This document shows positions 29,770 to 61,331 of a stretch of DNA of 64,000 nt, piece after piece (position 1 is the first letter of the stretch; each line of letters starts with the position of its first letter). Location of the stretch: the NCBI GenBank assembly GCA_028554795.2, contig CM068839.1, positions 16,171,220 to 16,235,219 of the forward strand, given 5' to 3'. The notes under the pieces were generated by a model, which searched no databases, was not told where the DNA came from, and saw nothing but the letters and a program-made list of their open reading frames with translations. The position numbers and the translations under genes were made by a program. This DNA is from Sinohyriopsis cumingii (Eukaryota > Mollusca > Bivalvia > Unionida > Unionidae).

Positions 29770-29780
29770 GGTATGCCACT

Positions 29781-43358: not shown

Positions 43359-43821
43359 AGTAGTGAATGGGGTGAGATTAGCGACAATGGGAATTAGCAT
43401 TAAAAACACCCCCTGGGTAAGATTAGCGACAATGGAAATTTAACATGGGCAAAAAACCCTGGGTAAGATTAGCGACAATGGAATTTAACATTGGAGAAAG
43501 GAAAAAAAGGAAATATCCATTTTAGCGACAAAGGCATTCGAACAATGGAAAAAAAATATCGATTCTAGGGACAAAGGCAATTGAACATGGGGAATAGAGT
43601 TTGGGTCTGTCTAGGGACAAGGGGAATTGAACATGGGAATAGAGTTTGGGTTTGTCTAGGGACAAAGGGGAATTGAACATGTTAGAAAAAAAAACTACTT
43701 TAGGGACAAGGGGAATTGAACATGGGATTTTAAAAAAAAAAAAATTAAAAATGGGGTAGGCAATCGAAAGGCTATCTCTTTTCGAGAAATGTGGGTGGCC
43801 CTGAAAAGGGCCTTTGGGTTT
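43359..43821 (+). repeat. Left TIR with eight internal sub-repeats
   Basis: 463 bases matching 60828-61331 inverted. It contains eight spaced copies of a unit GMGACAANGGNAATTNAACAT (for example GCGACAATGGAAATTTAACA and GGGACAAGGGGAATTGAACA) at roughly 35-60 base intervals. A histone-type stem-loop lies at the inner edge. Repeated terminal sites of this kind would suit binding by replication or integration proteins (inference). Confidence 0.95.
43797..43812 (-). terminator. Histone-type mRNA 3' stem-loop, gene 1
   Basis: Minus strand: CCCAAA, then GGCCCTTTTCAGGGCC, then ACCCACATTTCTC, then GAAAAGAGA. Stem 6 bp, loop TTTC, purine element 13 nt after the stem. It starts 15 nt after the stop codon at 43828. 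Confidence 0.85.
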
Positions 43822-43827
43822 CTTCTT

Positions 43828-44445
43828 CTAACTCCTCCACTTCTTCCACCAAGTCCTCACTTTTTCCATTATTCCTTTCTTCTTCTTTTTCTCGTCTGGC
43901 ATCCAGTCTGGATGGCCCAAGGCTCTAAACTTTTCCTGGACTTTGATCCAATTCTGATTTAGCCTTTCAAAATCAGCCTGTTTCTTTTTGTTTTCCTGAT
44001 CTTTTCTTTCTTTATTCCATCTCTCTTTAATCTTCTTTACCTCTACCTCCATCACTCTTCTCATCAACTCTTCTCCTTTCCTCAGTCTTTCCTGACCTCT
44101 CTCCACAGAAGAGCACTCTGTCCCATGTGACATATTTTCAAGAAAGCACCTGACTTTGCTTGCATTGTCAAGTGCTTCCTTTAGGCTTCCCACTCTGACA
44201 TAGGTGGGATTTATCATACCTCTCAATCTCTTTTCCTCCTCTTCTATCATTTCTGCTATCACTTCTTTTGCTACGTTTAGGCATTTATCGTAGTCCAGAT
44301 ACTCTGCTATCTTCCATTCTTTTTCTAGTCTCTCCACTACATAGATACCATCCATTATCCAATTGTATATATGTACCAAATTGTTGAACAACTCACTTGC
44401 AACCACCATCTTCGTTTTTATTATTCCGTAGAATGGTTCGAACAT
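43828..44445 (-). CDS. Charged coiled-coil accessory protein, 205 residues
   Basis: ATG at 44445 (MFEPFYGIIKTKMVVASELF). A TATA-like ACTATAAG lies only about 20 nt upstream, so translation may really begin at the second ATG, 44409 (MVVASELFNN). The C-terminal half is K/E/R-rich and predicted coiled coil (VEVKKIKERWNKERKDQENK), followed by HPDWMPDEKKKKK and a tryptophan/lysine tail. No recognised domain, signal peptide or membrane span. The gene is preceded by the shared promoter box and ends 15 nt before a histone-type stem-loop in the TIR. Role unknown. Confidence 0.75.
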   Translation of the reverse strand: MFEPFYGIIKTKMVVASELFNNLVHIYNWIMDGIYVVERLEKEWKIAEYLDYDKCLNVAKEVIAEMIEEEEKRLRGMINPTYVRVGSLKEALDNASKVRCFLENMSHGTECSSVERGQERLRKGEELMRRVMEVEVKKIKERWNKERKDQENKKKQADFERLNQNWIKVQEKFRALGHPDWMPDEKKKKKGIMEKVRTWWKKWRS

Positions 44446-44475
44446 CAAACCTTGTGGGTTCTTATAGTTAAAGTA

Positions 44476-44498
44476 CGGACGTGAAGGAAAACATCCCC
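44476..44498 (-). promoter_or_regulatory. Shared promoter box of gene 1
   Basis: The minus strand reads GGGGATGTTTTCCTTCACGT followed by CCG, then ACTTTAACTATAAG. A second copy (44545-44567) lies 69 nt further upstream. Confidence 0.75.
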
Positions 44499-44544
44499 TA
44501 AAAACATAAAATTGATCTTACCTAGATCATGACCAAGCAACGCG

Positions 44545-44567
44545 CGGACGTGAAGGAAAACATCCCC
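44545..44567 (-). promoter_or_regulatory. Second copy of the promoter box
   Basis: The same GATGTTTTCCTTCACGTCCG core, followed by GCGCG and a spacer also found at 45548-45600. No TATA follows directly, so it may be a duplicated remnant or an upstream element. Confidence 0.55.
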
Positions 44568-44606
44568 CTAGCTTTCTCATTTCATATAATATACTATCCA
44601 CATAAG

Positions 44607-44930
44607 TGAAGCAACAATAAACAAACCCCAAATCTACTATTTACACACGCAAATCATTAAAACAAAATCCATAATCTACTATCCACACAATTGTACGTGA
44701 GCGGTTACAAAACCCAAACTATACTCTTCACATACGCTAAGAAACAATAAACAAACCCCAAATCTACTATTTACACACGCAAATCATTAAAACAAAATCC
44801 ATAATCTACTATCCACACAATCGTACGTGAGCGGTTACAAAACCCAAACTATACTCTCCACATACGCTAAGAAACAATAAACAAACCCATAATCTACTAT
44901 TCACACAAACTTACGTGAGCGGTTACAAAC
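44607..44930. repeat. Tandem repeat, about 120-bp unit, 2.6 copies
   Basis: Units contain AACAATAAACAAACCCCAAA, then TCTACTATTTACACACGCAA and GTACGTGAGCGGTTACAAAA. A diverged partial copy lies at 45680-45800 in the equivalent spacer of the next module. Confidence 0.9.
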
Positions 44931-45047
44931 ACAAACACACAAACACATACACTCGCACTATGAAAAAAGAGTCAGTGTTTATATTCACACTACTCTATCT
45001 ACACACATTGGCAAATTGATGGTTATTTCTTTTCTAGAGTATTGGGT

Positions 45048-45063
45048 AGCCCTGAAAAGGGCT
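45048..45063 (-). terminator. Histone-type stem-loop, gene 2
   Basis: Minus strand: AGCCCTTTTCAGGGCT, then ACCCAATACTCTA, then GAAAAGAAA. It lies 27 nt after the stop at 45091. The stem's outer pair is A-T rather than G-C. Confidence 0.85.
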
Positions 45064-45090
45064 GTTTTTTGGAACTTCATGGACACCTGG

Positions 45091-45459
45091 TTAATGATGG
45101 CACCTTCCAGGCCTGGCGCCACATACACATCTTGTTCTCCAGTTGCTTTTTACTTTTTTTGGGGAGAGAGCAGAGGGAGGATAAATAGCTTCAGAATCCC
45201 AATTTTCTGTCTCTGGGATTCTGAAATTTCTTCTCTCCTTTTCCTCCTCTTCTTTGTTTCTTCTCTCCTCCGCCTCTTCTTTGTATCTTCTCTCCGCCTC
45301 TTCTTTGTATCTTCTCTCCTCCTCTTCTTTGTTTCTTTTCTCCTCCTCTTTCATCCTTCCCTCTTCCACAATGGCTTCCGCGGCCAGTTCGTTCAACAGG
45401 CGCCTGGCATAATCCAGATGCACATGAAGCTCCAACAGTTTCGCTAGTCTGGTGTTCAT
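45091..45459 (-). CDS. Accessory protein with E/K/R repeats, 122 residues
   Basis: ATG at 45459 (MNTRLAKLLELHVHLDYARR), about 50 nt after a TATA (AGTATAAATT at 45508-45517). An N-terminal amphipathic helix is followed by an imperfect repeat of EERRYKEEAERRYKEEAEER and NKEEEEKERR, then CVCGARPGRCHH at the C-terminus. Homologous to the frameshifted copy at 21846-22344 and, in its first 25 residues, paralogous to the next gene (MCSKLAKLNEAYVNLHRVR). No known domain. The promoter box lies at 45526-45547; the message ends in a histone-type stem-loop. Confidence 0.75.
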   Translation of the reverse strand: MNTRLAKLLELHVHLDYARRLLNELAAEAIVEEGRMKEEEKRNKEEEERRYKEEAERRYKEEAEERRNKEEEEKERRNFRIPETENWDSEAIYPPSALSPKKVKSNWRTRCVCGARPGRCHH

Positions 45460-45525
45460 TCTGGTGTTGATCAATCAACAAGGGTAGCTGGACTGCCGAA
45501 CGAGTTTCAATTTATACTAAAAGTG

Positions 45526-45547
45526 CGGACGTGAAGGAAAACATCCC
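45526..45547 (-). promoter_or_regulatory. Shared promoter box and TATA of gene 2
   Basis: GGGATGTTTTCCTTCACGTC then CGCACTTTTAGTATAAATT on the minus strand; CAGTCCAGCTACCC follows where transcription should start. The last element recurs as CAGTCTGGCTACCC at the old copy. Confidence 0.8.
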
Positions 45548-45595
45548 AATAAAAACATAAAATTGATCTTACCTAGATCAGGACCAAACAACGCG

Positions 45596-45615
45596 CGGAC
45601 CTAAAAGAAACACTC
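45596..45615 (-). promoter_or_regulatory. Variant second box
   Basis: GAGTGTTTCTTTTAGGTCCG on the minus strand. The same variant occurs at 23534-23553 of the old element, so it is conserved between families. Meaning unknown. Confidence 0.45.
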
Positions 45616-45919
45616 ACTCACTTTTTTATACTACCCATTCCTATTCTAAAATTTTTTTTCATTAATCACTTCAATATACTATTCACATACGCAAAGCAAT
45701 CCAATCAAACCCCCCAAATCTACTCTCCCCACACCTCAAACAGCCAAAAAAACATGATCTTAATCTACTATCCACACCAACGTACGTGAGATGTTACAAA
45801 CACAAACACACAAACACATACACTCGCACTATCAAAAAAAGAGTCAGTGTTTATATTCACACTACTCTACCTACACACATTGGCAAATTGATGGTTATTT
45901 CTTTTCTAGAGTATTGGGT

Positions 45920-45935
45920 AGCCCTGAAAAGGGCT
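45920..45935 (-). terminator. Histone-type stem-loop, gene 3
   Basis: AGCCCTTTTCAGGGCT on the minus strand with ACCCAATACTCTA and GAAAAGAAA after it; identical to gene 2's 3' end through at least 130 bases of spacer. It follows the stop at 45984 by 48 nt, across a poly-A-rich leader. Confidence 0.85.
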
Positions 45936-45983
45936 GTTTTTTTTTTGTTTTTTTGTTTTTTTTTTGTTTGCTATGGCAATCTT

Positions 45984-46352
45984 TTAGTTTCTAAGAATGC
46001 GATGTCCTCTGAGGATAGACTTTCTGGCGATAGGTCTGCTTCTTCGGAAAGAGAAGAAGAACTCTTTGGTGTCGATACGACAATCGACAAAGCCTCTGTC
46101 AGGTTCAGGTTGCTGCTGCTGCTGCTGCTGCTGTTGCTGTTGTTGTTGCTGTTGCTGTCTCTGAAGTCTGTACTTCTCTGTCCATTCTTCTTTCTCCCTG
46201 TTCACTTCTTCTCTGAAGAGCTCTTCTATCAGGTCTTCAGTAACTTTTAACATTCTCACATTCTCTATCTCTTCTGGCTTCGGTATCAGACTGTGTCTGA
46301 CCCTATGCAAATTCACGTAGGCTTCGTTTAGCTTAGCTAGTTTGGAGCACAT
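45984..46352 (-). CDS. Poly-glutamine accessory protein, 122 residues
   Basis: ATG at 46352 (MCSKLAKLNEAYVNLHRVRH). A helical N-terminal half (KVTEDLIEELFREEVNREKE) is followed by about 16 consecutive glutamines encoded by CAG/CAA (46105-46160), then DRGFVDCRIDTKEF and an arginine-rich end. The old copy at 23790-24153 conserves everything except the long Q tract, so the tract is a recent expansion. It has the shared promoter box (46421-46442) and a TTTAAG TATA-like site about 55 nt before the ATG. No recognised family. Confidence 0.75.
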   Translation of the reverse strand: MCSKLAKLNEAYVNLHRVRHSLIPKPEEIENVRMLKVTEDLIEELFREEVNREKEEWTEKYRLQRQQQQQQQQQQQQQQQQPEPDRGFVDCRIDTKEFFFSFRRSRPIARKSILRGHRILRN

Positions 46353-46420
46353 CTTCGTAGGAGGATGAGTCGACAATGGATGGTTAGACTGGAAACAACC
46401 AGGTTCTTAAAGTCAAAGCG

Positions 46421-46442
46421 CGGACGTGAAGGAAAACATCCC
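46421..46442 (-). promoter_or_regulatory. Shared promoter box of gene 3
   Basis: GGGATGTTTTCCTTCACGTC then CGCGCTTTGACTTTAAG on the minus strand, same spacing to the start as genes 1 and 2. Confidence 0.8.
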
Positions 46443-46569
46443 TCTACGGTTTTCGAGCCGCAACGTTCAATGAGTGCCATGAGAGGGATAGTAAGAAGTC
46501 AAAGAGCATAAATCAACATTCTTATAGCCAAACAAACCACAAAGGCATTTTTTTCAAAACACAACATTT

Positions 46570-46575
46570 TTTATT
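46570..46575 (-). terminator. Poly(A) signal of the structural operon
   Basis: AATAAA on the minus strand about 235 nt after the last operon stop (46811). No histone-type stem-loop occurs here. Confidence 0.65.
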
Positions 46576-46810
46576 CAAAATCACTTAACATTAACCAACA
46601 ACTCTAACATTTTTTAACAATAATCCAACAATATAACATCAAACATTTTTTTCAAATGACAAACATTTTTTTCAATTTACACTCTACTTTAAACAGGGTT
46701 GGCAACGTTGTGAATGAAATTGTGATTTCCACTGTTGCAAGTCATTGAGTCATGGATGGACACTACGTTTCCTAGCTGAATACAACAAAATAAGCATACT
46801 AGTCACAAAA

Positions 46811-47293
46811 TCAACGATTTACTTTCTCATCGTTTCTAGAAAAATCATGATCAAAATAAGTCACTAAATGTTCTTTTGCTGATAATAAGTGATCAATTTC
46901 GATCTCGACTTTCTCTTTGAATTTGTCAAAGAGGGCTTTGATATAATGGATTTCTTGAGTCGTTAATGGAGGACAGAAATGTTCACGCAAGTCTTTATAC
47001 CACCAACGTAACACGTCTTTTTTAAACAGACTCCAAGCTTCGTCCAGATATTCGTTGAATTTTTCTTCTTGACTGATGTTTTGACATTCATAGTAATCAT
47101 GCTTCATCCATATCGTAACTGTGTCTGCCAGGTATGTAGCACAGTAGGAGACCAATTGCTGTTCTTGTTCTGGACATCTCGACTTGATCATGATGTCCTT
47201 TTCGTCTTTGTCTTGGCATTCTCCTTCCACGGTCTCCTCACATTTCATGTCTAAAGTTTCTCCACTAGGCAAAGAGGGATAACAGTCTTCCAT
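46811..47293 (-). CDS. Conserved element protein of unknown function, 160 residues
   Basis: ATG at 47293, six nt after the MCP stop, so probably co-transcribed with it. Acidic N-terminus (MEDCYPSLPSGETLDMKCEE) and a helical C-terminal two-thirds (NEYLDEAWSLFKKDVLRWWY). The C-terminus is preserved in the old element (24565-24635). No cysteine-protease motif is apparent. Position at the end of the capsid operon suggests a virion or assembly role, which is inference only. Confidence 0.7.
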   Translation of the reverse strand: MEDCYPSLPSGETLDMKCEETVEGECQDKDEKDIMIKSRCPEQEQQLVSYCATYLADTVTIWMKHDYYECQNISQEEKFNEYLDEAWSLFKKDVLRWWYKDLREHFCPPLTTQEIHYIKALFDKFKEKVEIEIDHLLSAKEHLVTYFDHDFSRNDEKVNR

Positions 47294-47298
47294 GGCTT

Positions 47299-48624
47299 CT
47301 AATAGTCTAGAATGACTTCTCTCAAACTGTTGATTTCTATGGTATTGTCGAATTCTGCATACAGGAGGACGTTCACTGTGTGATCTGGAGGTGGATTTGC
47401 AAACTGAAGTTCCACACGAACCTGGCCCACTTTTATAGGGTAGAAATGTCCCTCGTCGCTGCCTTGGTCTGGAGTGAAATCAAAACCCCACAAAGCATAG
47501 CCTCCTGCATAATCGTCGTACGAAATACCGTGACTGGTGTTGGTTCCTAACTGTCCCGTGGCTTCGTACAGGGACAAGTACGATCTCAAATAATTCTTTG
47601 CGACACCAAAGTTGGGCTAAAAGGGTCGGGTACACAAGGTCTTGCCGTCGCGACTGACTTCGATCTTGGACACATTGTAATGTTGAAACTCAAAAGGATT
47701 TTGATCGTGGGTTCCGTTGAAGGCTGAATTCCTGACGATACCAACAATCAAACGCTTGGGTAACTGTCCTTGGAACAGATGATCTTCAATCATAGATCGC
47801 TGTCCAGCGGGAATGGTGAACGTTTTCACTTCTACGCGTCGTATCGGATACTTGGCGGTCGTTCTGCTCAACGTCTGACTGACGTCATTTTCCACTTTAG
47901 GTAACACTTCCACACGACGCACGTAAAGTCGGGCTTCTTGAATGATAGTTTTGTATTCGTTGGCATGGGCCATCAAATGGAAAGCGGCACTGCGACGATT
48001 CAGTCTCAGACGGATATCCACCCCGTTCAGCAAATACTTTTCTTGTAACCACATGTCCAAATGCAAACGATCCATCAGTTCTAAACTTCGCCCTTGCAGA
48101 ATTTTCTTACGACGGTCGTTAAACCCCACATTGTGAGGATTGTCATCTTCTGTCAGGACTGTGTCGTTAAACGTGCCTACACCTGCCGTGTCAGGTTTCC
48201 ATACCACGCAAGCATCCAGATGAGTATTCTTGGCTTCTTTTCCGTACGTCAAGAGATTTTCCAAGTAGGCACGATATGGGTAAATATCCATGCTGCTGCT
48301 GACCAGTTTGTTATTCAAGTACAAGGCAACTTCGCTGAACAAGGAATGCATGAAATTGTTGACAGGAGCTACTCTAGCATCGCCTTCTGGAATGGTGTTG
48401 TCCGTTTTGATCACTTTCACATTCAAATACAGGTAACTGCTATTCAGATCGATGTAATCTTCGGGCTGTCCTTTGATTTCAAACTCGATGGGAGCGGAAT
48501 CCGTCAAAGAGGAGACGGGATGAAATTCCACCCATTGGGATTCTTGCATCGTCATCATGGTAGGGGGCATGGCAAAGAGATCCAGTTCCGACTTGGAACA
48601 AGCACAAGACTCTCGGTGCATCAT
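47299..48624 (-). pseudogene. MCP: Major capsid protein (double jelly-roll hexon), one in-frame TAG
   Basis: Polinton/adintovirus hexon-like capsid protein. The first part (48624-47617, 335 residues) includes QWVEFHPVSSLTDSAPIEFE, NNFMHSLFSEVALYLNNKLV and YPYRAYLENLLTYGKEAKNT, typical of this family. The frame meets TAG at 47617-47619 and then continues in the same frame for 105 codons (PNFGVAKNY, ..., GTNTSHGISYDDYAGGYALW) to 47299. The second part is the expected C-terminal barrel and shows no decay, so this is a single nonsense change. No ATG allows the tail to be made separately. Full length would be about 441 codons, usual for the family. Confidence 0.9.
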
Positions 48625-48637
48625 TTTGTTCTGTGTC

Positions 48638-49045
48638 TCAATAATCGAAAACGTCTAAGTCTCGAACGGTTCTTCTTTTCTTTGTCTTTCTCGCTTTAGA
48701 CGTGTGAAGTCTGGTGAAAGGGTGTTTTCTTCGTCGTCTCTTTCTGCCTTGTCCTTGCTGAATGCTTGACTCGGTAGCGTGCAGGGCATTTATAGGTGTT
48801 TCGCGTCGGTCCAAAAGGTCTTTGCCCGTTTGCAGCAAAACATTTTTGCCTGCCCTCATGAAGGCTTCTTTAGGGTTTTGTTTGTCGATGATGACATTTT
48901 GGAGAAATTCTTTGCCTTGCGTCAGTGCCGCATCTTTCAAGGCGTGCAATCCGCGTGTCACCATCGGTTTCAACACCGGGGTCACCGAACGAAAGGCCGA
49001 TTTTAACATATCTCCTAAACCGTGTCCTCGCTGTCGAGCACCCAT
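48638..49045 (-). CDS. Basic pX/pVI-like virion protein, 135 residues
   Basis: Starts at ATG 49045: MGARQRGHGLGDMLKSAFRS, then VTPVLKPMVTRGLHALKDAA. This glycine-start, amphipathic segment followed by a strongly basic stretch (GQGRKRRRRKHPF, ARKTKKRRTVRD) is the common pattern of the protein next to the hexon in adintoviruses, compared with adenovirus core or membrane-lytic proteins. It ends 13 nt before the MCP start. Intact. The family comparison is from memory. Confidence 0.75.
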   Translation of the reverse strand: MGARQRGHGLGDMLKSAFRSVTPVLKPMVTRGLHALKDAALTQGKEFLQNVIIDKQNPKEAFMRAGKNVLLQTGKDLLDRRETPINALHATESSIQQGQGRKRRRRKHPFTRLHTSKARKTKKRRTVRDLDVFDY

Positions 49046-49103
49046 CGGTACACTGGATACATGACTTACGAGTCGTGAGAGAACCGTTTTCGAAAATGGA
49101 GTT

Positions 49104-49997
49104 TCACCGTGACTTTTCCTTTGGTGAATGAATATTTTGTCCCAAATCTCCTTTTATAGCAATGTTGACCGTGTCCAAATACGACTTGCTGGCAGGCAAA
49201 TAGTGAGGATGTACAAATTCGCGGTGAACGTGATAAGTGTTTCCACCTTCCTCGTCAGTGACCGTGGCAGAATCCACTTTGAAAGGAATGACACGCAGTA
49301 ACGGTGCGGAGGTGTGTCCCACCACATTGTACTCCACCACATCGGAGTATACAAACATCAAATTCAGTCCTTGGTTCAGTTCTACCGGGGCACGAAATAA
49401 CTTGCTAAAAGACTCGTTGTCGTAAACGATTGGTAATTCGTTTTTCTTGAGCATGGCCATTCTCATGTCCATGTCTCCGCCCAACATGTCAAACAATTCA
49501 GGACAAAATAAAATGGACAGGATTTTACTCCCGTCAAATTTCATCAAGAAACGACGAGCTGCTTTGTGGTATTCCATGGTGACACTTTTTTTGACTCTCT
49601 CCAAAGCTTTCAGAAACACGACATTAAATCTGGAGGTTATGGTGCTGACCAAATGTTGACCACTAAAATAATAGCCTGGAGGAATGAACAAGTGATAGGT
49701 GGCGTACTTTTGATTCTTTGTGCCAGGGGTTTTCTTGTCATATTTGCCATAGGTATCCAAGTACTGTTGCAATTGTTCGTCATGCACTTCTACATCAAAA
49801 AAATTTTGATTGGGAAGGACATTGAGGACTTGGGTCGGGTGAATGATTTCTACTAAAGCCACTTCCCAATGGGCTTCGTGATCTAAGGGGATAGTCTGAG
49901 GTAATTTGGCCGTGTAACAGCACAACGTGTTCTTGGGAAACACCTCCATGGAACTGTCACTGGGTAAGGTTAAGTAAAATTGGTTTTGGTGACTCAT
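49104..49997 (-). CDS. Minor capsid (penton-like, single jelly-roll) protein, 297 residues
   Basis: ATG at 49997. MSHQNQFYLTLPSDSSMEVF, PKNTLCCYTAKLPQTIPLDH and HWEVALVEIIHPTQ form the characteristic N-terminus of Polinton/adintovirus penton proteins, which occupy capsid vertices. NLMFVYSDVVEYNVVGHTSA and LLRVIPF are conserved strands of the C-terminal half. It lies between the membrane-protein gene and the pX-like gene, in usual order. The frame is intact with no membrane span. Confidence 0.88.
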   Translation of the reverse strand: MSHQNQFYLTLPSDSSMEVFPKNTLCCYTAKLPQTIPLDHEAHWEVALVEIIHPTQVLNVLPNQNFFDVEVHDEQLQQYLDTYGKYDKKTPGTKNQKYATYHLFIPPGYYFSGQHLVSTITSRFNVVFLKALERVKKSVTMEYHKAARRFLMKFDGSKILSILFCPELFDMLGGDMDMRMAMLKKNELPIVYDNESFSKLFRAPVELNQGLNLMFVYSDVVEYNVVGHTSAPLLRVIPFKVDSATVTDEEGGNTYHVHREFVHPHYLPASKSYLDTVNIAIKGDLGQNIHSPKEKSR

Positions 49998-50056
49998 AAT
50001 TCCAGAGTTCTGTGGCTGTCCGAGGGGTTACTGGACGTCAGAGGCGTGTCCCCGCA

Positions 50057-50410
50057 CTAAATGGGGTTCTGGTTGTGGTTGTTGTTTGAGTGGTGACTTG
50101 CACTGGGACTGGACACAAGGTTCCCGTGGTTCCCGTTCGAAGAGAATTTCAGGGAGGGATTAGGAAGCAGGTAACCAATGCAACTGCTCAATAAAATGGT
50201 CCACAATTGTTTGTCTCCTTGTTGCAAACTCAAATTGGGGATGGCTGCACCGTTGACACAATACACCACGAAGATTTGGCAGAAAAAGACGATTTGCGTT
50301 TTAGGCACTCGTTCTCCGCACCACACCCACAAGGGTTGTTTTTGTAAATCTTGCAGAGAAGAACTGGGTGAAGGAGTGGTCGACGTAGCTGCGTCTGTGT
50401 GAAAGGGCAT
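50057..50410 (-). CDS. Conserved two-span membrane protein, 117 residues
   Basis: ATG at 50410 (MPFHTDAATSTTPSPSSSLQ); the GTG nine bases upstream is not needed. It has the motif QKQPLWVWCGERVPKTQIVF leading into a first hydrophobic span (IVFFCQIFVVYCVNGAAI), then LWTILLSSCIGYLLPNPSL as a second. I recognise this as a common Polinton ORF adjacent to integrase and penton. The C-terminus is asparagine-rich low complexity. It begins five nt after the integrase stop. Role unknown; membrane location inferred. Confidence 0.75.
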   Translation of the reverse strand: MPFHTDAATSTTPSPSSSLQDLQKQPLWVWCGERVPKTQIVFFCQIFVVYCVNGAAIPNLSLQQGDKQLWTILLSSCIGYLLPNPSLKFSSNGNHGNLVSSPSASHHSNNNHNQNPI

Positions 50411-50415
50411 GATGG

Positions 50416-51525: not shown

Positions 51526-51542
51526 TTTTTTGTGTTTGTGTG

Positions 51543-52638: not shown

Positions 52639-52693
52639 CTTTGAGTCTTCAGCACCAAAAACACTGATACCCCTACTTGGTCACAGACCTTTT

Positions 52694-53614: not shown

Positions 53615-53683
53615 GTTCAAAATGTGTGTGAGACAGACGAAAAGGGTCTGATGTTTTTATAGATTTTTTTTTGTGGAGTGAAA

Positions 53684-54412
53684 TTAAGTCGAGGACGGAG
53701 ACGTGTACAGGACAGGCCCTCCGTCTTGGCACCAGTGGTGAAACAAGTGGGTACGAAATCGCAAATCCTCGGGGGTCGTAGGTTTCAAATCGACGAGTAA
53801 ATAGGCGTGTGGAGTTTGAGTGGCATCGTCGTACGCCTGAGTTAGCCAAGGTGTCCCTAACTGTTTGGCTAAGACTTGCACGTGCGATTTATCTCGAGGG
53901 CTTTTAAACAAGACCACGTAATGCGCATTGAGACTGATGGTGCGATGGGCTTTACTTTGTTGAAACAAATTTTGGGTGATGTAAACGACACTGGCATTAC
54001 GGTGATGCCCTTTGCGCGTGAACCACAGTTTAATTTCTTCTTCGTCTTCTCCTAACATGTCGTCGAAAATGACCAAATGGGTTTGACGGGAGTCAGAGAC
54101 GATGCCGTCGTCTTCTTTAGGAATGCCTTCCACAAACACGATGGAATCGCCTTGACTTTTTCGCAAGAGGCTGTACGCCGATTGCCACTCTTTGTAACAC
54201 CACACGATCCGTTGAGGTGGCCGATCGATCAAATGATGTTCATGTTCGATCAAACGTTTGACGAATTCGGTTTTGCCTGAACCGCTAGGTCCAGCAATGA
54301 GCATGTTAAAAGGATGGCGAAGATACAAAGAAACCCAACTGGCACGATCTAAGTGTTCGTCGATGACTTTGTCAGTGGAGGAAGAGGGAGCAGAGACAGT
54401 AGAGGTAGCCAT
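53684..54412 (-). CDS. ATP: Genome-packaging ATPase (FtsK/HerA, A32-like), 242 residues
   Basis: ATG at 54412. Walker A: MLIAGPSGSGKTEFVKRLIE (about residues 38-57). Walker B: THLVIFDDMLGEDEEEIKLW, followed by the sensor-like VVYITQNLFQQ. This family translocates viral DNA into preformed capsids. TATA (AGTATATAAACTC) at about 54460-54472, roughly 50 nt before the ATG. Frame intact; the old element has a broken homologue at 27335-27973. Confidence 0.95.
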   Translation of the reverse strand: MATSTVSAPSSSTDKVIDEHLDRASWVSLYLRHPFNMLIAGPSGSGKTEFVKRLIEHEHHLIDRPPQRIVWCYKEWQSAYSLLRKSQGDSIVFVEGIPKEDDGIVSDSRQTHLVIFDDMLGEDEEEIKLWFTRKGHHRNASVVYITQNLFQQSKAHRTISLNAHYVVLFKSPRDKSHVQVLAKQLGTPWLTQAYDDATQTPHAYLLVDLKPTTPEDLRFRTHLFHHWCQDGGPVLYTSPSST

Positions 54413-54459
54413 AGTGTCTGGAATGTCACTTGTGACACGAAAACAAACAAGACGAGAGT

Positions 54460-54472
54460 TTATATACTTTTT
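54460..54472 (-). promoter_or_regulatory. TATA box of the ATPase gene
   Basis: AGTATATAAACTC on the minus strand, about 50 nt before the ATG at 54412. Confidence 0.75.
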
Positions 54473-54483
54473 TTCAGAGCACG

Positions 54484-54489
54484 TTTATT
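54484..54489 (-). terminator. Poly(A) signal before the ATPase promoter
   Basis: AATAAA on the minus strand, 11 nt upstream of the ATPase TATA box; it would end transcripts coming from PolB and the small gene. Confidence 0.65.
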
Positions 54490-54589
54490 GAATGTTTCAA
54501 ACATGAATACGAAAGACAAAGAAATACATAAAAACCAAAGGCTTAAGTACAAGGATAAAAGGCACATGATAACCATCAACGTGGAATAA

Positions 54590-54775
54590 ACACAAGTGTC
54601 TGTACAGCATGTTTTGGGTAATGTTCTGACCAGTTCTATAGGGGGTAAGGTCACACAAGTGTCCTCCCGAAAGGGTCTTTCAGGCCTGTCCACGACATTC
54701 CTGTCCTGGGTGACGGGTTCTTCTGGCACCGTCACTAACACAGGTTGAAAAGTCGCAAGGCTCACAATCGCATTC
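54590..54775 (-). pseudogene. Orphan tail of a small gene left by deletion
   Basis: The stretch reading PVLVTVPEEPVTQDRNVVDR and DTCVTLPPIELVRTL matches the protein at 28154-28402, but its start and about 1.7 kb of neighbouring genes seen in the old element are missing. It now continues out of frame from the 54-residue gene. The homology break is close to AAAAGT at about 54750. Confidence 0.6.
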
Positions 54776-54844
54776 CAATTCAGAAGCCCCACACTTGAAT
54801 TGTGCCTGTCTAAACTTGTTTTGTGTTTCTCTGAAAGTATTCAT
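54680..54844 (-). CDS. Small cysteine-containing protein, 54 residues
   Basis: ATG at 54844: MNTFRETQNKFRQAQFKCGA, then ELECDCEPCDFSTC with five closely spaced cysteines. The first 25 residues match the old gene at 30220-30408; the remainder runs through the deletion junction, so the C-terminus is new. A TATATAAAAAG box lies at about 54902-54912. Confidence 0.55.
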   Translation of the reverse strand: MNTFRETQNKFRQAQFKCGASELECDCEPCDFSTCVSDGARRTRHPGQECRGQA

Positions 54845-54876
54845 CTTGTTCGCTCGGTCTTGGTAGTCACAATGAA

Positions 54877-57800
54877 CTATTGATCTTGCCTAGGGTTCCT
54901 TTTTATATACAGACCAATACCGACGTGTCCATACGGTAAGGTGAAATGATTGGAAAGTCGCACTCGCTCGTGGTACACGATTTGATAGTCTTTTTCCAGG
55001 GTCGATTGACGATGTGGTGAGTGGGTAAACGTACAATCTTGTTCGGTTGATAGGTGGTCACTTTAAAGTTTCCATCCTCTCCCGATTGCAAGGCTTCTTT
55101 CAATACCCCAAAGTTCACCACACGACTGGTACGATAATTCAGAGTCAATCCTTTCACTTTACACGTCGTGTGCAATTCTCCTTGTGGGTCCCGGTATTAG
55201 TAGCCGTAATTTTTGGGACCACCACTGACGAAACTTAGAATCTTGTCGTCGGGATGTTCGTCTGTCCAGGCTCCTAAACGGTCTCCTTCGATGTCAGGGT
55301 GCTGTTGACTCGGGTGATGGATGTAAATGCAACTGTCCGTGTCAAAGTACAGGACACGTTCCCCTAACAGTTCTAAAGCTTCGTACAATTTTAAGCGAGC
55401 ATGAGCTGTCACGTAAGCCGCAATGATGACATTTCCAAAGGGTTCGTCTTGTACAAAGTCCAGATCTTCTTCGTAATTGACCAAGATCAAATCCTCGCGA
55501 ACGACGTCCACGTGTTTCATGTATTTGGTTTTGTCGTGAATCATCTGAAAGTAGCGGGAAGGTTCTGTCAAATATTTCGTCTTGGGTAAACACGGTCGTT
55601 GTGCCATTTTACCCCACAAGCAATTTAACATCACTTTGGCAAACGACCGCCTGCCTTCGTTTATTTCGATGTGGTCTAAAGGGATGCCCTCTTGTTCATA
55701 GTATTTCTCTTTGAATGTCTTTTCGTCTTCGGAAGTGTGACACCAGGAAGGATAGCCGCTGGCTTCTTGCTTCAGTTTCAAAAAGGCATCCACGTAGTCG
55801 GCGAAAATGCCTTTCTGCGTGGGGTCACCCTTGTGGTATTGTTGTGTCTTGGGAAAGTGGCAAATTTCGTACACTTCTAACAGTTGGTATCCCATGTCCA
55901 GAGCTTTGAACAATTCTACGCTGACACAGGTTCCCGTCAAGGCCCGTTCTTCCTGGGTGTGCTGACAAGGTTGGTCTTGGTTGCACGTTTCGGCACAAGT
56001 ACGGCACAAAGGAAACATCAGTTTGCCTTGGCAATGGTGAGGTAAGACGGGATGGTATAGGTTCGTGGGAGGCAAAACTTTACACTTGATCAAGCCTTCG
56101 TATTGTCGAATGTTTTTTAGGTCGATGTGTTCCGTGAACAATTGTGGGTGCCCTGCAGGAAAGCGACAATATTTGCACACGTAAGGATACAGCGAACACA
56201 CGTCCAAGTATTTGATTTCTTCTCCTTTCTCTTCGTCGGCTTGGTACATCAAACAGGTGGCATTGGTCCTTCCTCCGTACAAACTATCCCTCGGGTTTAG
56301 GGGGTCCATCAGCTTGTAACTTTCCACGGCACGTTTAAACTCGGGATCGGTTTTCATACGGTGATCGTACTCGTGTTCCCACATTTCCACCACTTGGTAT
56401 CCTTGCTGTTCTAACTTTAGGCGTCGCTGACAAGTATCCTGGTACAAGTCTTCCATGGTTCGTTGTAAAAATTGATTTTTAGTGCTACGATCAGGGTAAC
56501 AGACGGGACATCCGTGACATAAGCAACCGTTAAACTCGTACACGATCTTGGGGTTTTCTAAGTCCCAGCCATCGACCGAATACGTTTCGATGGTCTTTTC
56601 GCCTCCTCCGTTGCGGGCATGCTGAATCCATTTATCTTCCTTGTCGCACAAGTAACGTAACCAACGTAGGGGTTTGACCGAGTATGGACGTTTGACATAG
56701 TGGGTCGTTTGAGAACTGATGACAGCCACGGTGTTTTCAGGCATGAATCGTTGTCGATACACTAAGGAACACGCTTTGGCAATGGTGCAAGCTTCTTTCA
56801 AAGGATCGACCCCTCCGTGTTCCATGAACAGTTCTCGAAATTTTCCACAGCAACGCCGTAAAATGTCCACGTCGGAACGACAATACTTTAGCATTTCTTC
56901 CTGAAAGTTGAAAGGGTCTGAGGCGTGAGTCTGGTACCAAGCGTAGAAAGCTTCTCGTTGTTCGGTACGCATGTTGTCGGGGTCGTAATAGTGAACCTCA
57001 GGGAAATGGGGTAGAACGGTGTGTTGATTGGCTTCCGTATTGAAAAAGTGTGGAAAGTACCCTTTAGCCATTTCTGTCATTCCAAACGTTTTAGGCATTC
57101 GACTCAAAGGCATGGCCAAATAGCTCATCGAATCTTTAAACTGCACTTGTCCCACTTGCATGAAAATGATTTTGGCTCCGTTCAAAGTGACTTTAGGACG
57201 TTCGGTGCCTTGTTCCGTATAGTATCTGAGAAGAAACTGTCCATCGTATCCGGAGAAATTGTGAGCCATCACTGTGGCATGACGATGACAATCTCCGTAA
57301 CGTTCGATGTCCTCTTGGCTCCACGTCTTGTCGATGGGATCTAAGACCCATTGGGCAAAATCGGCTAACGTGTTCGGTCCTCCAAAGATTTTTTCACGCC
57401 CTCCGGGAATCTTGCTGCAGTGAGGGCAATGACTGAAGATAGGTTCTTGAATGCACTTCTCGCACGCTCGATGAGCCACGCAGAAATTAGGAATGTGAAT
57501 GCCAGTCTCTTGCATGCATTCGAAATCGAAAAAGATGAAATTGCCTTTCTTCTTGTGACCGTCCTCTTTCTCTGGTGGGGGTTGATATTTTTGCACGTAG
57601 CATTCGTGTTGCAGGTCCACGATGTGGTGACAAATGTGACATTTTTATTTCCTGAACATACGTGTGTCTTGGTACTGTTGGTACGTAGGCCTTGTCGACA
57701 CGTAGGGCACAATCGCAGCAGTTGACAAGCACATTTCTGCTGTGAACCTTGCGTCTTCAGATGTTGTTGGTAACAGGCAAGGCTGACAAACGTGCGCAGA

Positions 57801-58931
57801 CAAGCAGGACAATGTACTCTTTCTTGTCCTTCGAGAGGCCAAACATCCTGGGCATTTCCATCCGCAATGTTTGTGTTGCTCTTGATTGTTATAGCGACAG
57901 TCACATTTCTCACAGTAATAACTGTATCCCAGGAATCCAGTGATAGTGGTAATGGTATCGAAATGGTCATCATGATAATAGACATGAATGTATTTTCCGT
58001 CCTTAAAGTCTTTCCCTCGAAACAACAGAGGTCCGCGCATTTCTTGAGGGTGCACTTTCAAGATGTAGAGTGGAGCTAGGACATCTTGCAATTTCTGCAT
58101 CTCAGGAATGCCACAGGGTGTGTCTTTGGACAGTCCGGCTTGTTGTAACAGGAGTTCTGCTTCGTTTCGTTGTTTGGCTCGGTCGGATCGTTGAATAGTT
58201 TTCCAGGCTCTTTTCCATTCTACCGTGTCGTTCTTGTTGGCATAGGTTCGTCCCACAACGATGGCTCGGGCTAAACACATCTGGTCTTGAGAATTGTGAA
58301 TTTGGACGAGACTCTTTTTGGTGTTGCGAAGGTCGTTCACCAATAACACCTTATTGCGTTGTCCGGTCCCTTGAGGAGGAGAGACGTGGGCCATTTTCAG
58401 TGTGGCTTTACCATCGGTGATGTCAAACTGGTCATTAGATTGTTGTACGTGTTGAATCTTGTCCATGACTTTGGAAGGGGTTAGTTCTGCGGGTCTTCTA
58501 AACTCGATCCAAACAGGGGATTTCAAGCTGTCGTGATCTATGGATAGTGTCAAGCGATCGTCTTCTTTGGGTTGACATTGTCGCTTGAGTGCGGTGAGCA
58601 AAGAATCCCACATCTCGGTGATAAACCCTTCTGCTTTCTCCAATGGTACGTCGGACTTGAAATCTTTAAACTTCACTGTGTAGGTGTAAGCCGTGGTTCT
58701 AAATTTTCTAGAGGAGCGCTTTTCCGTCTCTCGAATGGAATAGTACTGTTCAGGGTTGACTAAGGGTGGTGAACTTTGTTTAGAGGGTTCGGATTCTGGT
58801 TCACTCATGTCCTCTTCAAAATCACTGGCATGAATTTGTGCCAAGACTTCAGCTCTGGTACGAGGCGATAGATCACGTTTCTGCCTCTTACTTTCTTCTT
58901 CTTTCTTCTCGAATGAATAGGATCGTTCCAT
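54877..58931 (-). pseudogene. polB: Protein-primed family B DNA polymerase, several breaks
   Basis: Replicates the element. N-terminal part 58931-57645 (428 codons) includes cysteine pairs CEKCDC and KCPGC. The main frame 57620-55197 (807 codons) carries exonuclease motifs (FIFFDFECMQ, AHNFSGYDGQFLLRYY, YCRSDVDILRR), motif A (DVCSLYPYVCKYC), motif B (KVMLNCLWGKMAQR) and motif C (YFDTDSCIYI). Breaks seen against the old copy: a 14-base deletion near 57835, a one-base loss near 57648 with TAA at 57645-57647, TAA at 55197-55199 after KNYGY, and a one-base loss near 55003. The C-terminal part continues to about 54877. All catalytic residues remain, so loss of function is from the breaks alone. 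Confidence 0.93.
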
Positions 58932-58976
58932 CTTGAGTGCAAAACGTCAAATGACTCAAGTTTAAACACCATAGAC

Positions 58977-59012
58977 TAATTTATGGTCATGGCAAACCAG
59001 CGTATATAAAAA
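58977..59012. promoter_or_regulatory. Divergent promoter between PolB and the CCHC gene
   Basis: Plus strand GTATATAAAAAGGG (59003-59016) serves the CCHC gene. On the minus strand ACCATAAATTA at about 58975-58985 is a candidate for PolB. The old element has the same arrangement. Confidence 0.6.
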
Positions 59013-59066
59013 GGGTGTGTGTCTTGTCCTTTCACTATTCATTTCACTCTCAAACCGAGCACAACT

Positions 59067-59582
59067 ATGGAAGAGACTACGCAGATGGAACGTTTCATCA
59101 GAGCTTTGCGAGGGGTCATTAGAAAATTCTCTTCAGACCAGCCGACGGACTGCTCTCCTTCCTTTCGAGATAAAAGTCAAGATACTTGCTATATCTGTCA
59201 GAAGAAAGGGCACTGGTCTTCAGAGTGTCCAGACCGTCAAAAAAGAACAAAAACAGGGGCTAGAAAAGACAGAAGTCAAGATACCTGTTATTATTGTCAA
59301 GAAAAAGGACATTGGTCTCCAGATTGCCCAAAAAAGAAACAAGAGGAGTCGGAAGAAAAGAGGGATTCTTCAGAAGAAGAGAGAGATTCTTCAGAGGAAG
59401 AAAGCAGCCAGGTGAAGAAAAAGAAACACGAGAAGAAAAGAAGGGAAGAAAGTGAGGAGGAAGAGGAGGAAAAGACTGTGACGGTGAAGAAATTGAAAAA
59501 AAGAGAGTGTAAAAAAAAAGAAACAGAAGAAGTGAATGTAATTTATAAAGTGTTCTGTTGTGAATTGCGAATTGGATTGTAA
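59067..59582 (+). CDS. Two-knuckle CCHC zinc-finger protein, 171 residues
   Basis: ATG at 59067 (MEETTQMERFIRALRGVIRK), about 60 nt after a TATA box. Two zinc knuckles, CYICQKKGHWSSEC and CYYCQEKGHWSPDC, each with C-x2-C-x4-H-x4-C, are joined by a basic linker. A long E/K/S tail has repeats of RDSSEEE. Such knuckles bind single-stranded nucleic acid in retroviral nucleocapsid and CNBP-type proteins, so RNA or ssDNA binding is a fair inference. Transcribed opposite to PolB. The old element keeps only its start. No plus-strand stem-loop or AATAAA is obvious after it. Confidence 0.8.
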   Translation: MEETTQMERFIRALRGVIRKFSSDQPTDCSPSFRDKSQDTCYICQKKGHWSSECPDRQKRTKTGARKDRSQDTCYYCQEKGHWSPDCPKKKQEESEEKRDSSEEERDSSEEESSQVKKKKHEKKRREESEEEEEEKTVTVKKLKKRECKKKETEEVNVIYKVFCCELRIGL

Positions 59583-59764
59583 CTATGGAGAAAAGAATAC
59601 ATTAATTATATAAGGTAAGTGTCTTTGAGTTTTGATTTTAAATAAGAAGCTACACTCACGCACTCATACACAGACATGTACTATAAGGGTAAAATGGTTT
59701 GTTTTTTGTTGATTTTTGAGTTATTGGCAAATTGAAAGGCTATCTCTTTTCGAGAGAAGTGGGT

Positions 59765-59780
59765 GGCCCTGAAAAGGGCC
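59765..59780 (-). terminator. Histone-type stem-loop after the small basic gene
   Basis: Minus strand: CCAAAAAA, GGCCCTTTTCAGGGCC, ACCCACTTCTCTC, GAAAAGAGA. It begins 20 nt after the stop at 59801. The flank from about 59735 to 59785 repeats TIR sequence internally. Confidence 0.85.
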
Positions 59781-59800
59781 TTTTTTGGTGTAGGGTGAGT

Positions 59801-59974
59801 TTAAGCAATCAACTTTAACTGCCTTAAGCCTTTGCCACGGCCGAGGCCTACTTCTGATGATGATGATTGGGTTGAAATCATGAAGGGTGGTACGATAGGC
59901 TTAGTCACAGGGTTGGCGTGTTTAGCTCGGGAAGGTCGTATTCTCTTCGGTCGTGATAAAGAAGTCTGATACAT
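59801..59974 (-). CDS. Small arginine/lysine-rich protein, 57 residues
   Basis: ATG at 59974: MYQTSLSRPKRIRPSRAKHA, then proline-rich NPVTKPIVPP, ending EVGLGRGKGLRQLKLIA. Net charge strongly positive, no acidic cluster, suggesting a DNA-binding or core protein (inference). It is too short for routine ORF calling, but it starts directly next to the stop (59975-59977) of an alternative frame of the gene upstream and ends 20 nt before a histone-type stem-loop, which supports it being real. Confidence 0.55.
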   Translation of the reverse strand: MYQTSLSRPKRIRPSRAKHANPVTKPIVPPFMISTQSSSSEVGLGRGKGLRQLKLIA

Positions 59975-60054
59975 TTATTTCAGACTTCTTAACTCCGCTA
60001 AAATGTCCAACAGTACTGTGGCCGTTTGATTTTCACCCTCTTGTATCTTTGCTG

Positions 60055-60360
60055 CTACTTCTTCTTGTTGTTGTTTTTTTTTCTTACCTCTTCTTGTTGA
60101 TGTTGCTGTTGCTGTAGGAGAAAAGCTTGTTCCGCTTCCTTTTGTCGTTGCATAAATTTCTCCAATTCTTCTTTCTGTCTCTGTCTAAAATTCTCCACTT
60201 GCGGTAATGAAGAATGAGACGAAGGTTCCGGAACAAATTCTTGCGAGGTAAGAAAATCCACAAAATTCCAATGTACCTCTTCTGAAAGTAAGTCCGGGTT
60301 CCCTTGGGCGGTGTCCACTGCTGGTGCACCCCAGTTAATCGTTTTCTGAGTTTCCGTCAT
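60055..60360 (-). CDS. Glutamine-rich coiled-coil accessory protein, 101 residues
   Basis: ATG at 60360 (MTETQKTINWGAPAVDTAQG). It has a predicted coiled coil with RQRQKEELEKFMQRQKEAEQ and a QQQQHQQEE stretch, ending in lysines at 60055. The stop follows a run of nine A (60074-60082). Past the run, another frame stays open through QQQEEVAAKIQEGENQTATV to 59975, which looks more protein-like than the lysine tail. A homopolymer length change has probably altered the C-terminus. TATA (TCTATATAGATT) at 60406-60417. Function unknown. Confidence 0.65.
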   Translation of the reverse strand: MTETQKTINWGAPAVDTAQGNPDLLSEEVHWNFVDFLTSQEFVPEPSSHSSLPQVENFRQRQKEELEKFMQRQKEAEQAFLLQQQQHQQEEVRKKNNNKKK

Positions 60361-60405
60361 GTTGAATCACTGTCTCGCATCGATTGACTGCACACAGGCG
60401 CTAGC

Positions 60406-60537
60406 GAATCTATATAGACCACGTGACGTCACAGACTGCTCTCTTCGGATTGCTTGCGGGCTGACTGAATTTTGTCACGCGTGTTTGGATTGGTCAATGA
60501 ACTCAATCCGTTTCAATCCTTCCTCTCCCTATAAATA
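60406..60537. promoter_or_regulatory. Divergent promoter with CRE, E-box and CCAAT
   Basis: Between the minus gene at 60360 and plus gene at 60582: TATATAGA (60411-60418, minus use), CACGTGACGTCA (to 60431; a CRE TGACGTCA at 60424-60431 overlapping CACGTG), an inverted CCAAT (GATTGGTCAAT, about 60488-60498), and TATAAATA (60530-60537, plus use). This factor-site layout is like many cell-cycle promoters; function is inferred. Confidence 0.65.
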
Positions 60538-60581
60538 AGCGCAGTTCAGTGCATTGATTCACCTGTTCTCGGAGCCTCACG

Positions 60582-60809
60582 ATGTGGACCACAGTTGAAT
60601 CATCCACCCTTGTGTCTTCAATGATGTTTAGGACGGACATACCCATGTATGTCCGATCCAAGTGGACTGTTGTTGATAGGACAGATACTAGTCTATGGAT
60701 GAGAAGAGTTTACATAGAAAGACAAGGATGCCTCAAGAGGGTACTTGTGTATGGAACTGCAGTTAGAAGGAATTTAAGAAGAAGATGTGACAGATGCCGT
60801 CTATGTTAA
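60582..60809 (+). CDS. Small arginine/cysteine-tailed protein, 75 residues
   Basis: ATG at 60582 (MWTTVESSTLVSSMMFRTDI), about 50 nt after TATAAATA. The C-terminal part is basic (RRVYIERQGCLKR, RRNLRRRCDRCRLC) and ends with a CxxCxxC cluster. No known family. It is the only plus-strand gene next to the right TIR, and its message runs directly into the histone-type stem-loop 24 nt after the stop. The old element has lost it. Confidence 0.65.
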   Translation: MWTTVESSTLVSSMMFRTDIPMYVRSKWTVVDRTDTSLWMRRVYIERQGCLKRVLVYGTAVRRNLRRRCDRCRLC

Positions 60810-60827
60810 TATTAATATTAACATAAA

Positions 60828-61331
60828 ACCAAAGGCCCTTTTCAGGGCCACCCACATTTCTCGAAAAGAGACAGCCTTTCGATTGCATACCCCATTTTTT
60901 AATTTTTTTTTTAAAAAAATCCCATGTTCAATTCCCCTTGTCCCTAAAGTAGTTTTTTTTTCTAACATGTTCAATTCCCCTTTGTCCCTTGACAAACCCA
61001 AACTCTATTCCCATGTTCAATTCCCCTTGTCCCTAGACAGACCCAAACTCTATTCCCCATGTTCAATTGCCTTTGTCCCTAGAATCGATATTTTTTTCCA
61101 TTGTTCGAATGCCTTTGTCGCTAAAATGGATATTTCCTTTTTTTTTCCTTTCTCCAATGTTAAATTCCATTGTCGCTAATCTTACCCAGGGATTTTTGCC
61201 CATGTTAAATTTCCATTGTCGCTAATCTTACCCAGGGTGGTTAATGTCAAATTTCCATTGTCGCTAATCTTACCCAGTGGGTGTTTTTAATGCTAATTCC
61301 CATTGTCGCTAATCTCACCCCATTCACTACT
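60828..61331 (-). repeat. Right TIR with nine internal sub-repeats
   Basis: Inverted match to 43359-43821, about 40 bases longer because it carries four GCGACAATGG-type units where the left arm has three. It ends ...CCCCATTCACTACT before ACCATA. Confidence 0.95.
60834..60849 (+). terminator. Histone-type stem-loop after the right-end gene
   Basis: Plus strand: AACCAAA, GGCCCTTTTCAGGGCC, ACCCACATTTCTC, then GAAAAGAGACAG (60863 onward). This is the textbook animal histone 3' end in stem, loop, both flanks and U7-site distance. It starts 24 nt after the stop at 60809. Confidence 0.88.

What the first reader, a model, noticed from the sequence alone, without database searches (positions are those of the whole stretch)
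43797..60849. Polinton accessory genes end in histone-type stem-loops with U7-like downstream elements
Five sites in the complete element (43797, 45048, 45920, 59765 on minus; 60834 on plus) have a 6-bp stem, TTTC loop, ACCCA 3' flank and a GAAAAGA element exactly 13 nt past the stem. Each lies 15-48 nt downstream of an ORF and in its sense orientation. This matches the replication-dependent histone pre-mRNA 3' signal (stem-loop bound by SLBP, purine element paired to U7 snRNA). None of the ORFs is a histone. The element may therefore express a gene set as non-polyadenylated, S-phase-linked mRNAs. I do not know of such a report for Polintons.
Basis: partly seen in the sequence, partly recalled or inferred. 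Interest (0 to 1): 0.92.

Follow-up and report, generated by a model that had tools for sequence, protein, structure and literature searches.

The report
Virus-like transposon borrowing histone mRNA ends
A virus-like DNA transposon, probably of a bivalve mollusc, ends its small accessory genes with the RNA signal that animals otherwise use for replication-linked histone mRNAs, which suggests that it makes tail-less messages tied to DNA replication.

Summary
All five sites have a 6-bp stem, TTTC loop, ACCCA and GAAAAGA exactly 13 nt past the stem; 100 shuffles give none. The complete Polinton is 43359-61331, flanked by ACCATA. A second, decayed Polinton (20848-35122) has two intact and two decayed cassettes. 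The five cassettes are not independent: two are TIR copies, two a 99% duplicate. Stem-loop plus downstream element differ at 0 of 23 positions between the elements' TIR cassettes, the spacer at 4 and 7 of 13. Four accessory genes have a sense stem-loop 15-48 nt after the stop and no AATAAA/ATTAAA for over 500 nt; the fifth (p101) fits only if spliced. Of 15 other ORF ends, none has a stem-loop within 800 nt. None of the five is a histone by Pfam. Best reading: the element uses the host SLBP/U7 pathway to give accessory genes poly(A)-less mRNAs. S-phase coupling is inferred; no RNA was tested. Four distant, partial relatives lack the motif. Ten searches of open papers, some listings truncated, showed no report in Polintons or transposons.

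The parts
43359..61331 (.). Complete Polinton E1, ends AGTAGTGAATGG, 6-bp target-site duplication ACCATA
   Evidence: core genes
43359..43821 (.). Left TIR; inner edge lies 9 nt 5' of the stem-loop
60825..61331 (.). Right TIR
43797..43812 (-). Histone-type stem-loop GGCCCTTTTCAGGGCC after p205
   Evidence: RF00032 42.5 bits
43777..43783 (-). Downstream element GAAAAGA (within AAAAGAGA)
43828..44409 (-). Accessory gene p205 (193 aa from the ATG at which its relatives start; ORF to 44445, 205 aa)
   Evidence: 4 homologs at 51-58% identity; no Pfam; no counterpart in E2
45048..45063 (-). Histone-type stem-loop AGCCCTTTTCAGGGCT after p122a; downstream element 45028-45034
   Evidence: 31.0 bits, below cutoff
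45091..45459 (-). Accessory gene p122a
   Evidence: decayed counterpart in E2 (28% over 159 columns)
45920..45935 (-). Histone-type stem-loop after p122b; downstream element 45900-45906
   Evidence: 31.0 bits, below cutoff; 99% copy of the preceding cassette
45984..46352 (-). Accessory gene p122b
   Evidence: counterpart in E2 at 80% over the first 54 aa
59765..59780 (-). Histone-type stem-loop (internal); downstream element 59745-59751
   Evidence: RF00032 38.4 bits
59801..60360 (-). Accessory gene p101: ORF 60055-60360, or spliced 60088-60360 + 59801-59965 (possible GT-AG intron containing an AATAAA at 59979)
   Evidence: no homologs; no counterpart in E2; gene model unconfirmed
60582..60809 (+). 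Accessory gene p75, divergent from p101
   Evidence: no Pfam; no counterpart in E2; database homologs not searched for
60834..60849 (+). Histone-type stem-loop after p75, in the right TIR; downstream element 60863-60869
   Evidence: RF00032 41.1 bits
44476..44495 (-). Shared promoter box GATGTTTTCCTTCACGTCCG upstream of p205 (second copy 44545-44564)
45526..45545 (-). Same promoter box upstream of p122a
46421..46440 (-). Same promoter box upstream of p122b
46570..46575 (-). AATAAA after the structural-gene cluster, 235 nt past the stop of ORF 46811-47293
20848..35122 (.). Second, decayed Polinton E2, target-site duplication ATCGCA
21314..21329 (-). E2 left-TIR stem-loop, intact, GAAAAGA at +13
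   Evidence: RF00032 37.4 bits
34665..34680 (+). E2 right-TIR stem-loop, intact, GAAAAGA at +13
   Evidence: RF00032 34.8 bits
21803..21818 (-). E2 decayed stem-loop after the p122a counterpart, GAAAAGA retained at +13
23761..23776 (-). E2 decayed stem-loop after the p122b counterpart

Best explanation
A Polinton, probably of a bivalve mollusc, has equipped a block of small accessory genes at both of its ends with the host's replication-dependent-histone 3' end signal. Host SLBP would bind the hairpin, U7 snRNP would pair with the GAAAAGA(GA) element, and the nascent RNA would be cut just after ACCCA, giving mRNAs that end in a stem-loop without poly(A). The core replication and capsid genes would instead rely on ordinary poly(A) signals. 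The likely consequence is that accessory (early or host-interaction) proteins are made when SLBP is abundant, in S phase or in oocytes and embryos, when an element that replicates its own DNA benefits. Shown: the cis signals, their placement, conservation in two elements, and restriction to accessory genes. Inferred: processing, absence of poly(A), poly(A) use by core genes, cell-cycle coupling.
For: RF00032 hits above cutoff at 3 of 5 E1 sites and at 2 E2 sites. GAAAAGA at +13 in 5 of 5 E1 sites and in the 2 intact E2 sites. No match in 100 shuffles. E1 versus E2 TIR cassettes: 0/23 differences in stem-loop + element against 4/13 (p=0.012) and 7/13 (p=2e-4) in the spacer; BLAST similarity between the elements' TIRs (E up to 1e-3) is confined to stretches of 45-85 nt at the cassette. 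Bottom pair changed on both sides, G-C to A-U, in the duplicated cassettes, keeping the stem. Four accessory genes have a sense stem-loop within 48 nt of the stop and no AATAAA/ATTAAA for at least 511 nt, and p101 does so under the spliced model; of the 15 other ORF ends tabulated none has a stem-loop within 800 nt. In both elements the TIR inner edge lies 9 nt 5' of the stem-loop, so in E1 both outward-facing terminal genes end in it. Shared promoter box in three of five genes. p205 has four homologs. In a bivalve, histone mRNAs carry the stem-loop (PMC6210712, passage).
Against: No RNA data. Duplicated cassettes leave about three lineages in E1. Spacer comparisons within E1 and for E1_a/E2_a are not significant (p=0.12, 0.33, 0.65). 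Covariation is a single event and 78 of 500 shuffles do as well. Two cassettes fall below the Rfam cutoff, and their purine element reads AAAGAA rather than AAAGAG. The p101 gene fits only if spliced, unlike replication-dependent histone genes; unspliced it has an AATAAA 75 nt past its stop, before the stem-loop; it has no detected homolog. p205, p101 and p75 have no counterpart in E2, so the E2 TIR stem-loops do not follow recognisable relatives of the E1 terminal genes. Poly(A) motifs are not a clean marker of core genes: their distances are 235-3840 nt, many inside other ORFs. Four distant relatives lack the motif. Hairpin folding beats shuffles clearly in only 3 of 6 cassettes. Host histone genes and U7 snRNA of this genome could not be examined.
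Confidence: 0.75

Rival explanations
1. The signal makes stem-loop-ended mRNAs, but the benefit is not S-phase timing: it gives compact termination, or maternal storage in oocytes and embryos, or escape from poly(A)-dependent surveillance.
For: Very compact genes (stop to stem 15-48 nt in four of five); only the 3' signal, not any cell-cycle timing, was observed.
Against: Restriction to accessory genes and a promoter box shared by three of them suggest coordinated regulation rather than mere compactness.
Confidence: 0.3
2. A captured host histone 3' end spread through the element by duplication and TIR homogenisation and is a passive passenger.
For: Four of five E1 cassettes belong to TIR or tandem duplicates; E2 TIR cassettes lack recognisable relatives of p205 and p75 next to them.
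Against: Sense orientation just after an accessory ORF in four of five (the fifth if spliced); signal letters preserved while the spacer diverges between elements; compensatory bottom-pair change.
Confidence: 0.1
3. It is a DNA element of the TIR (hairpin for replication, packaging or integration), not an RNA signal.
For: Two of five copies lie in the TIRs, at the inner edge in both elements.
Against: Three of five copies are internal; the loop, ACCCA flank and spaced purine element fit RNA processing and have no evident DNA role.
Confidence: 0.05

Closest known systems
Metazoan replication-dependent histone 3' end signal (Rfam RF00032 plus histone downstream element)
   Same: 16-nt stem-loop, ACCCA flank, spaced purine element, short distance from the stop, no nearby poly(A) motif (four of five genes), TATA-like boxes close upstream
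   Different: On non-histone genes of a mobile element; E2 copies have diverged 3' flanks; one gene may be spliced
Polinton/Maverick elements and adintoviruses
   Same: PolB, rve+chromo integrase, A32-like ATPase, capsid-type gene, TIRs, 6-bp target-site duplication
   Different: Carries histone-type 3' ends on accessory genes; not found in four distant, partial relatives; no report found in the searches listed
Adenovirus-type early regions (analogy, recalled)
   Same: Small regulatory-looking genes at both ends of a linear genome
   Different: Adenovirus early mRNAs are polyadenylated (recalled); no homology shown here
Histone3 element named in coronavirus genomes (PMC7786107, passages)
   Same: An RF00032 label given to a viral sequence by bioinformatics
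   Different: There a 14.7-bit match, far below the cutoff of 34 shown, inside the nsp3 coding region of an RNA virus; no gene-end placement

Membership tests
Replication-dependent histone 3' processing signal | RF00032 match above curated cutoff | tested here: met
   3 of 5 E1 sites and 2 E2 sites; the other 2 E1 sites at 31.0 against a cutoff of 34, so not met for those
Replication-dependent histone 3' processing signal | ACCCA flank at the cleavage site | tested here: met
   5 of 5 in E1; diverged in both intact E2 cassettes (ACTCA, ATTCC)
Replication-dependent histone 3' processing signal | Purine-rich downstream element with AAAGAG core | tested here: met
   Exact AAAGAG in 3 of 5 E1 cassettes, AAAGAA in the other 2; GAAAAGA in 5 of 5; core as given for mouse H2a in PMC7026596 (passages)
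Replication-dependent histone 3' processing signal | SLBP binding and U7 cleavage, mRNA without poly(A) | not testable with these tools
   needs RNA or biochemistry
Replication-dependent histone genes | Encodes a histone | tested here: not met
   No histone domain in the 5 accessory ORFs scanned against Pfam
Replication-dependent histone genes | Intronless | tested here: inconclusive
   4 of 5 are single ORFs; p101 has a possible intron
Polinton/Maverick | TIRs and 6-bp target-site duplication (criterion recalled) | tested here: met
   E1 ACCATA, E2 ATCGCA
Polinton/Maverick | Viral-type PolB, retroviral-like integrase, A32-like ATPase | tested here: met
   Pfam PF03175, PF00665, PF04665
Polinton/Maverick | Double jelly-roll major capsid protein and protease | tested here: inconclusive
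   47617-48624 matches a large animal family; its capsid label is recalled and no fold was run; no protease was found in the ORFs scanned

The most novel reading that the evidence does not exclude
A eukaryotic mobile DNA virus-like element runs a regulon of non-histone genes as SLBP/U7-processed, poly(A)-less, replication-coupled mRNAs, the first non-histone clients of this pathway.
Probability: 0.55. Interest if true: 0.92.

Novelty: new variant of a known kind. Interest (0 to 1): 0.83.

Why it matters
[quoted passage not shown] A mobile element that uses the pathway would show it is open to non-histone genes, would suggest how Polintons tie their expression to host replication or the germ line, and would explain why such genes could be missed by poly(A)-selected RNA-seq.

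Tried and rejected
Chance was rejected. Misannotated histone genes were rejected (Pfam).

Searches for relatives with context. Capsid-type protein in IMG/VR: nothing. Stem-loop + ACCCA in IMG/VR: 0; stem core + spaced GAAAAGA: 0; 17-nt stem-loop core alone: 7 contigs, none reaching the RF00032 cutoff, taken as background. p205 alignment in IMG/VR: 234 pattern matches, no relative. Capsid alignment in prokaryote genome contigs: 147 pattern matches, 4 relatives, L001-L004, in MAGs, with no Histone3 hit at E up to 1. From their ORF lists they are partial or decayed: L002 ends 1.3 kb after the capsid-type gene, and L001 and L003 look decayed, so this negative is weak.

Homologs of p101: none. Fold of p205 (mean pLDDT 76, all-helical): no PDB match at E of 0.001 or better. 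The phrog_332 match of p122b covers its glutamine-rich stretch and was rejected as compositional. The CLPTM1 match of p101 is below its cutoff and was rejected. Covariation test: one event, 78 of 500 shuffles as good. Hairpin folding against 200 shuffles: none, none or one as good in 3 of 6 cassettes tested; 7, 10 and 16 as good in the other 3. The downstream 20-nt comparisons are ungapped and may be inflated by shifts, so I rely on the spacer-only values. A paper naming Histone3 in coronaviruses was opened (passages): its match is 14.7 bits inside a coding region, which I do not count as a precedent.
Full report
WHAT IS THERE. The window holds two Polinton elements. E1 (43359-61331) has TIRs of about 460-510 nt, termini AGTAGTGAATGG and identical 6-bp flanks ACCATA. 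It encodes a PolB (PF03175), an integrase with chromodomain (PF00665, PF00385) and an A32-like ATPase (PF04665), plus a capsid-type protein at 47617-48624. That protein has 1849 relatives, of which 120 were listed; 12 of the 14 listed ones that carry an organism name are bivalve (Mercenaria, Ostrea, Crassostrea, Saccostrea), one is amphioxus and one a bacterial MAG. The capsid name is recalled. The bivalve host is inferred from this. E2 (20848-35122, flanks ATCGCA) is decayed; stretches that align with E1 over 400 nt or more are 70-84% identical, the ATPase and PolB regions 80-84%.

THE SIGNAL. At five places in E1 there is a hairpin RGCCCTTTTCAGGGCY, followed by ACCCA and by GAAAAGA exactly 13 nt past the stem. 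Three are RF00032 hits above cutoff (42.5, 41.1, 38.4 bits); two score 31.0, below the cutoff of 34. None of 100 shuffled sequences gives a match.

INDEPENDENCE. The left and right cassettes are TIR copies, and the two 45-kb cassettes are 99% duplicates. The five share similar flanks and are probably paralogous, so E1 offers about three lineages. Against mere hitchhiking: between E1 and E2 the 23 signal letters are unchanged in both TIR cassettes while the 13-nt spacer differs at 4 (p=0.012) and 7 positions (p=2e-4); BLAST finds no similarity between the elements' TIRs beyond stretches of 45-85 nt at the cassette; and the bottom stem pair changed on both sides in the duplicated cassettes (one event, 78 of 500 shuffles as good). 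Within E1, and for the E1_a/E2_a pair, the spacer tests are not significant (p=0.12, 0.33, 0.65).

GENES. The cassettes lie in sense orientation after small accessory genes: p205 (15 nt after the stop), p122a (27), p122b (48), p75 (24) and p101. p101 is either an ORF stopping 274 nt upstream, with an AATAAA (59979) in between, or a spliced gene with a possible GT-AG intron (which would hold that AATAAA) whose last exon stops 20 nt before the stem. No accessory protein has a histone domain by Pfam. p205 has four homologs at 51-58% identity and an all-helical model without a significant PDB match. p101 has no detected homolog. p122a and p122b have counterparts in E2; p205, p101 and p75 do not. 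Database homologs of p122a, p122b and p75 were not searched for. In a table of 20 ORF ends that I chose (the interrupted capsid-type gene counts as two), the five accessory genes, with p101 in its spliced form, have the stem-loop within 48 nt and no AATAAA/ATTAAA for 511 nt or more. The other 15 have no stem-loop within 800 nt; their next AATAAA/ATTAAA lies 235-3840 nt away, often inside another ORF, so poly(A) use by core genes is plausible, not shown. The structural cluster is followed by an AATAAA at 46575, 235 nt past its last stop. Three accessory genes share the box GATGTTTTCCTTCACGTCCG just upstream of TATA-like sequences; one E2 copy has 2 mismatches. p101 and p75 are divergent, with a TGACGTCA/CACGTG overlap between them.

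ARCHITECTURE. In both elements the inner edge of the TIR falls 9 nt 5' of the stem-loop. In E1 the terminal outward-facing gene at each end thus runs into a TIR-borne 3' end signal.

MECHANISM. In animals SLBP binds this hairpin, and U7 snRNP pairs with the downstream element and cuts 4-5 nt past the stem, leaving no poly(A) (PMC7026596, passages; the purine core AAAGAG of mouse H2a is given there). Three of five E1 cassettes contain AAAGAG; the other two read AAAGAA. Hydractinia work calls stem-loop plus downstream element hallmarks of replication-dependent histones (PMC5011920, passages). In the bivalve Lucina pectinata the histone mRNAs carry the palindrome, though a nearby purine element was seen in only some (PMC6210712, passage). 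I infer that the element's accessory mRNAs are processed this way; S-phase or germ-line coupling is a further inference.

DISTRIBUTION. Four relatives in contigs of bacterial MAGs, probably host contamination (L001 Bathymodiolus symbiont, L002 Escarpia symbiont, L003 Breoghania, L004 Rickettsiaceae; capsid-type protein 27-46% identical), show no Histone3 hit. They are partial or decayed, so the negative is weak but suggests a lineage-restricted trait. IMG/VR gave no relatives and no cassette. The own assembly could not be searched.

NOVELTY. Ten full-text searches of open papers listed no report of histone-type 3' ends in Polintons or transposons. Five of the lists were cut: 20 of 29 shown, 20 of 35, 20 of 38, 15 of 22, 15 of 558. 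For viruses, one paper names a Histone3 element in coronaviruses; the passages show a 14.7-bit match inside nsp3 coding sequence, far below the cutoff. I judged the other papers by listings and abstract beginnings, except for passages read in PMC6303110, PMC7026596, PMC6210712, PMC5011920, PMC2781718 and PMC1924863. Subscription papers are mostly not held, and the adintovirus paper that I tried to open was not held. The signal is a known kind; its use by a mobile element for non-histone genes is the new part.

Noticed in passing
47299-48624 (-): The capsid-type ORF of E1 is 335 aa while most listed relatives are about 430-470 aa; a continuation seems to lie in another frame downstream, so E1 is probably not fully intact (or the assembly has an error).
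   Followed up: partly
60360-60582: Divergent promoter of p101 and p75 with overlapping CACGTG and TGACGTCA motifs and TATA-like boxes on both sides.
   Followed up: no
59067-59620 (+): Zinc-knuckle (CCHC) gene without AATAAA/ATTAAA for 1.9 kb and with a GGTAAGT soon after its stop; it might splice to the exon that ends in the right-TIR stem-loop. In E2 its first 44 codons lie directly before that stem-loop, probably through a deletion.
   Followed up: partly
44590-44849: 130-nt tandem repeat (two copies, 95%) between p205 and p122a, with related copies to 45839.
   Followed up: no
L001-L004: Polinton-bearing contigs inside bacterial MAGs (Bathymodiolus and Escarpia symbionts, Breoghania, Rickettsiaceae): probable contamination that can serve as a source of animal Polintons.
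   Followed up: partly
L001:11734-11798: Weak, below-cutoff twister-P1 ribozyme match downstream of the capsid-type gene.
   Followed up: no
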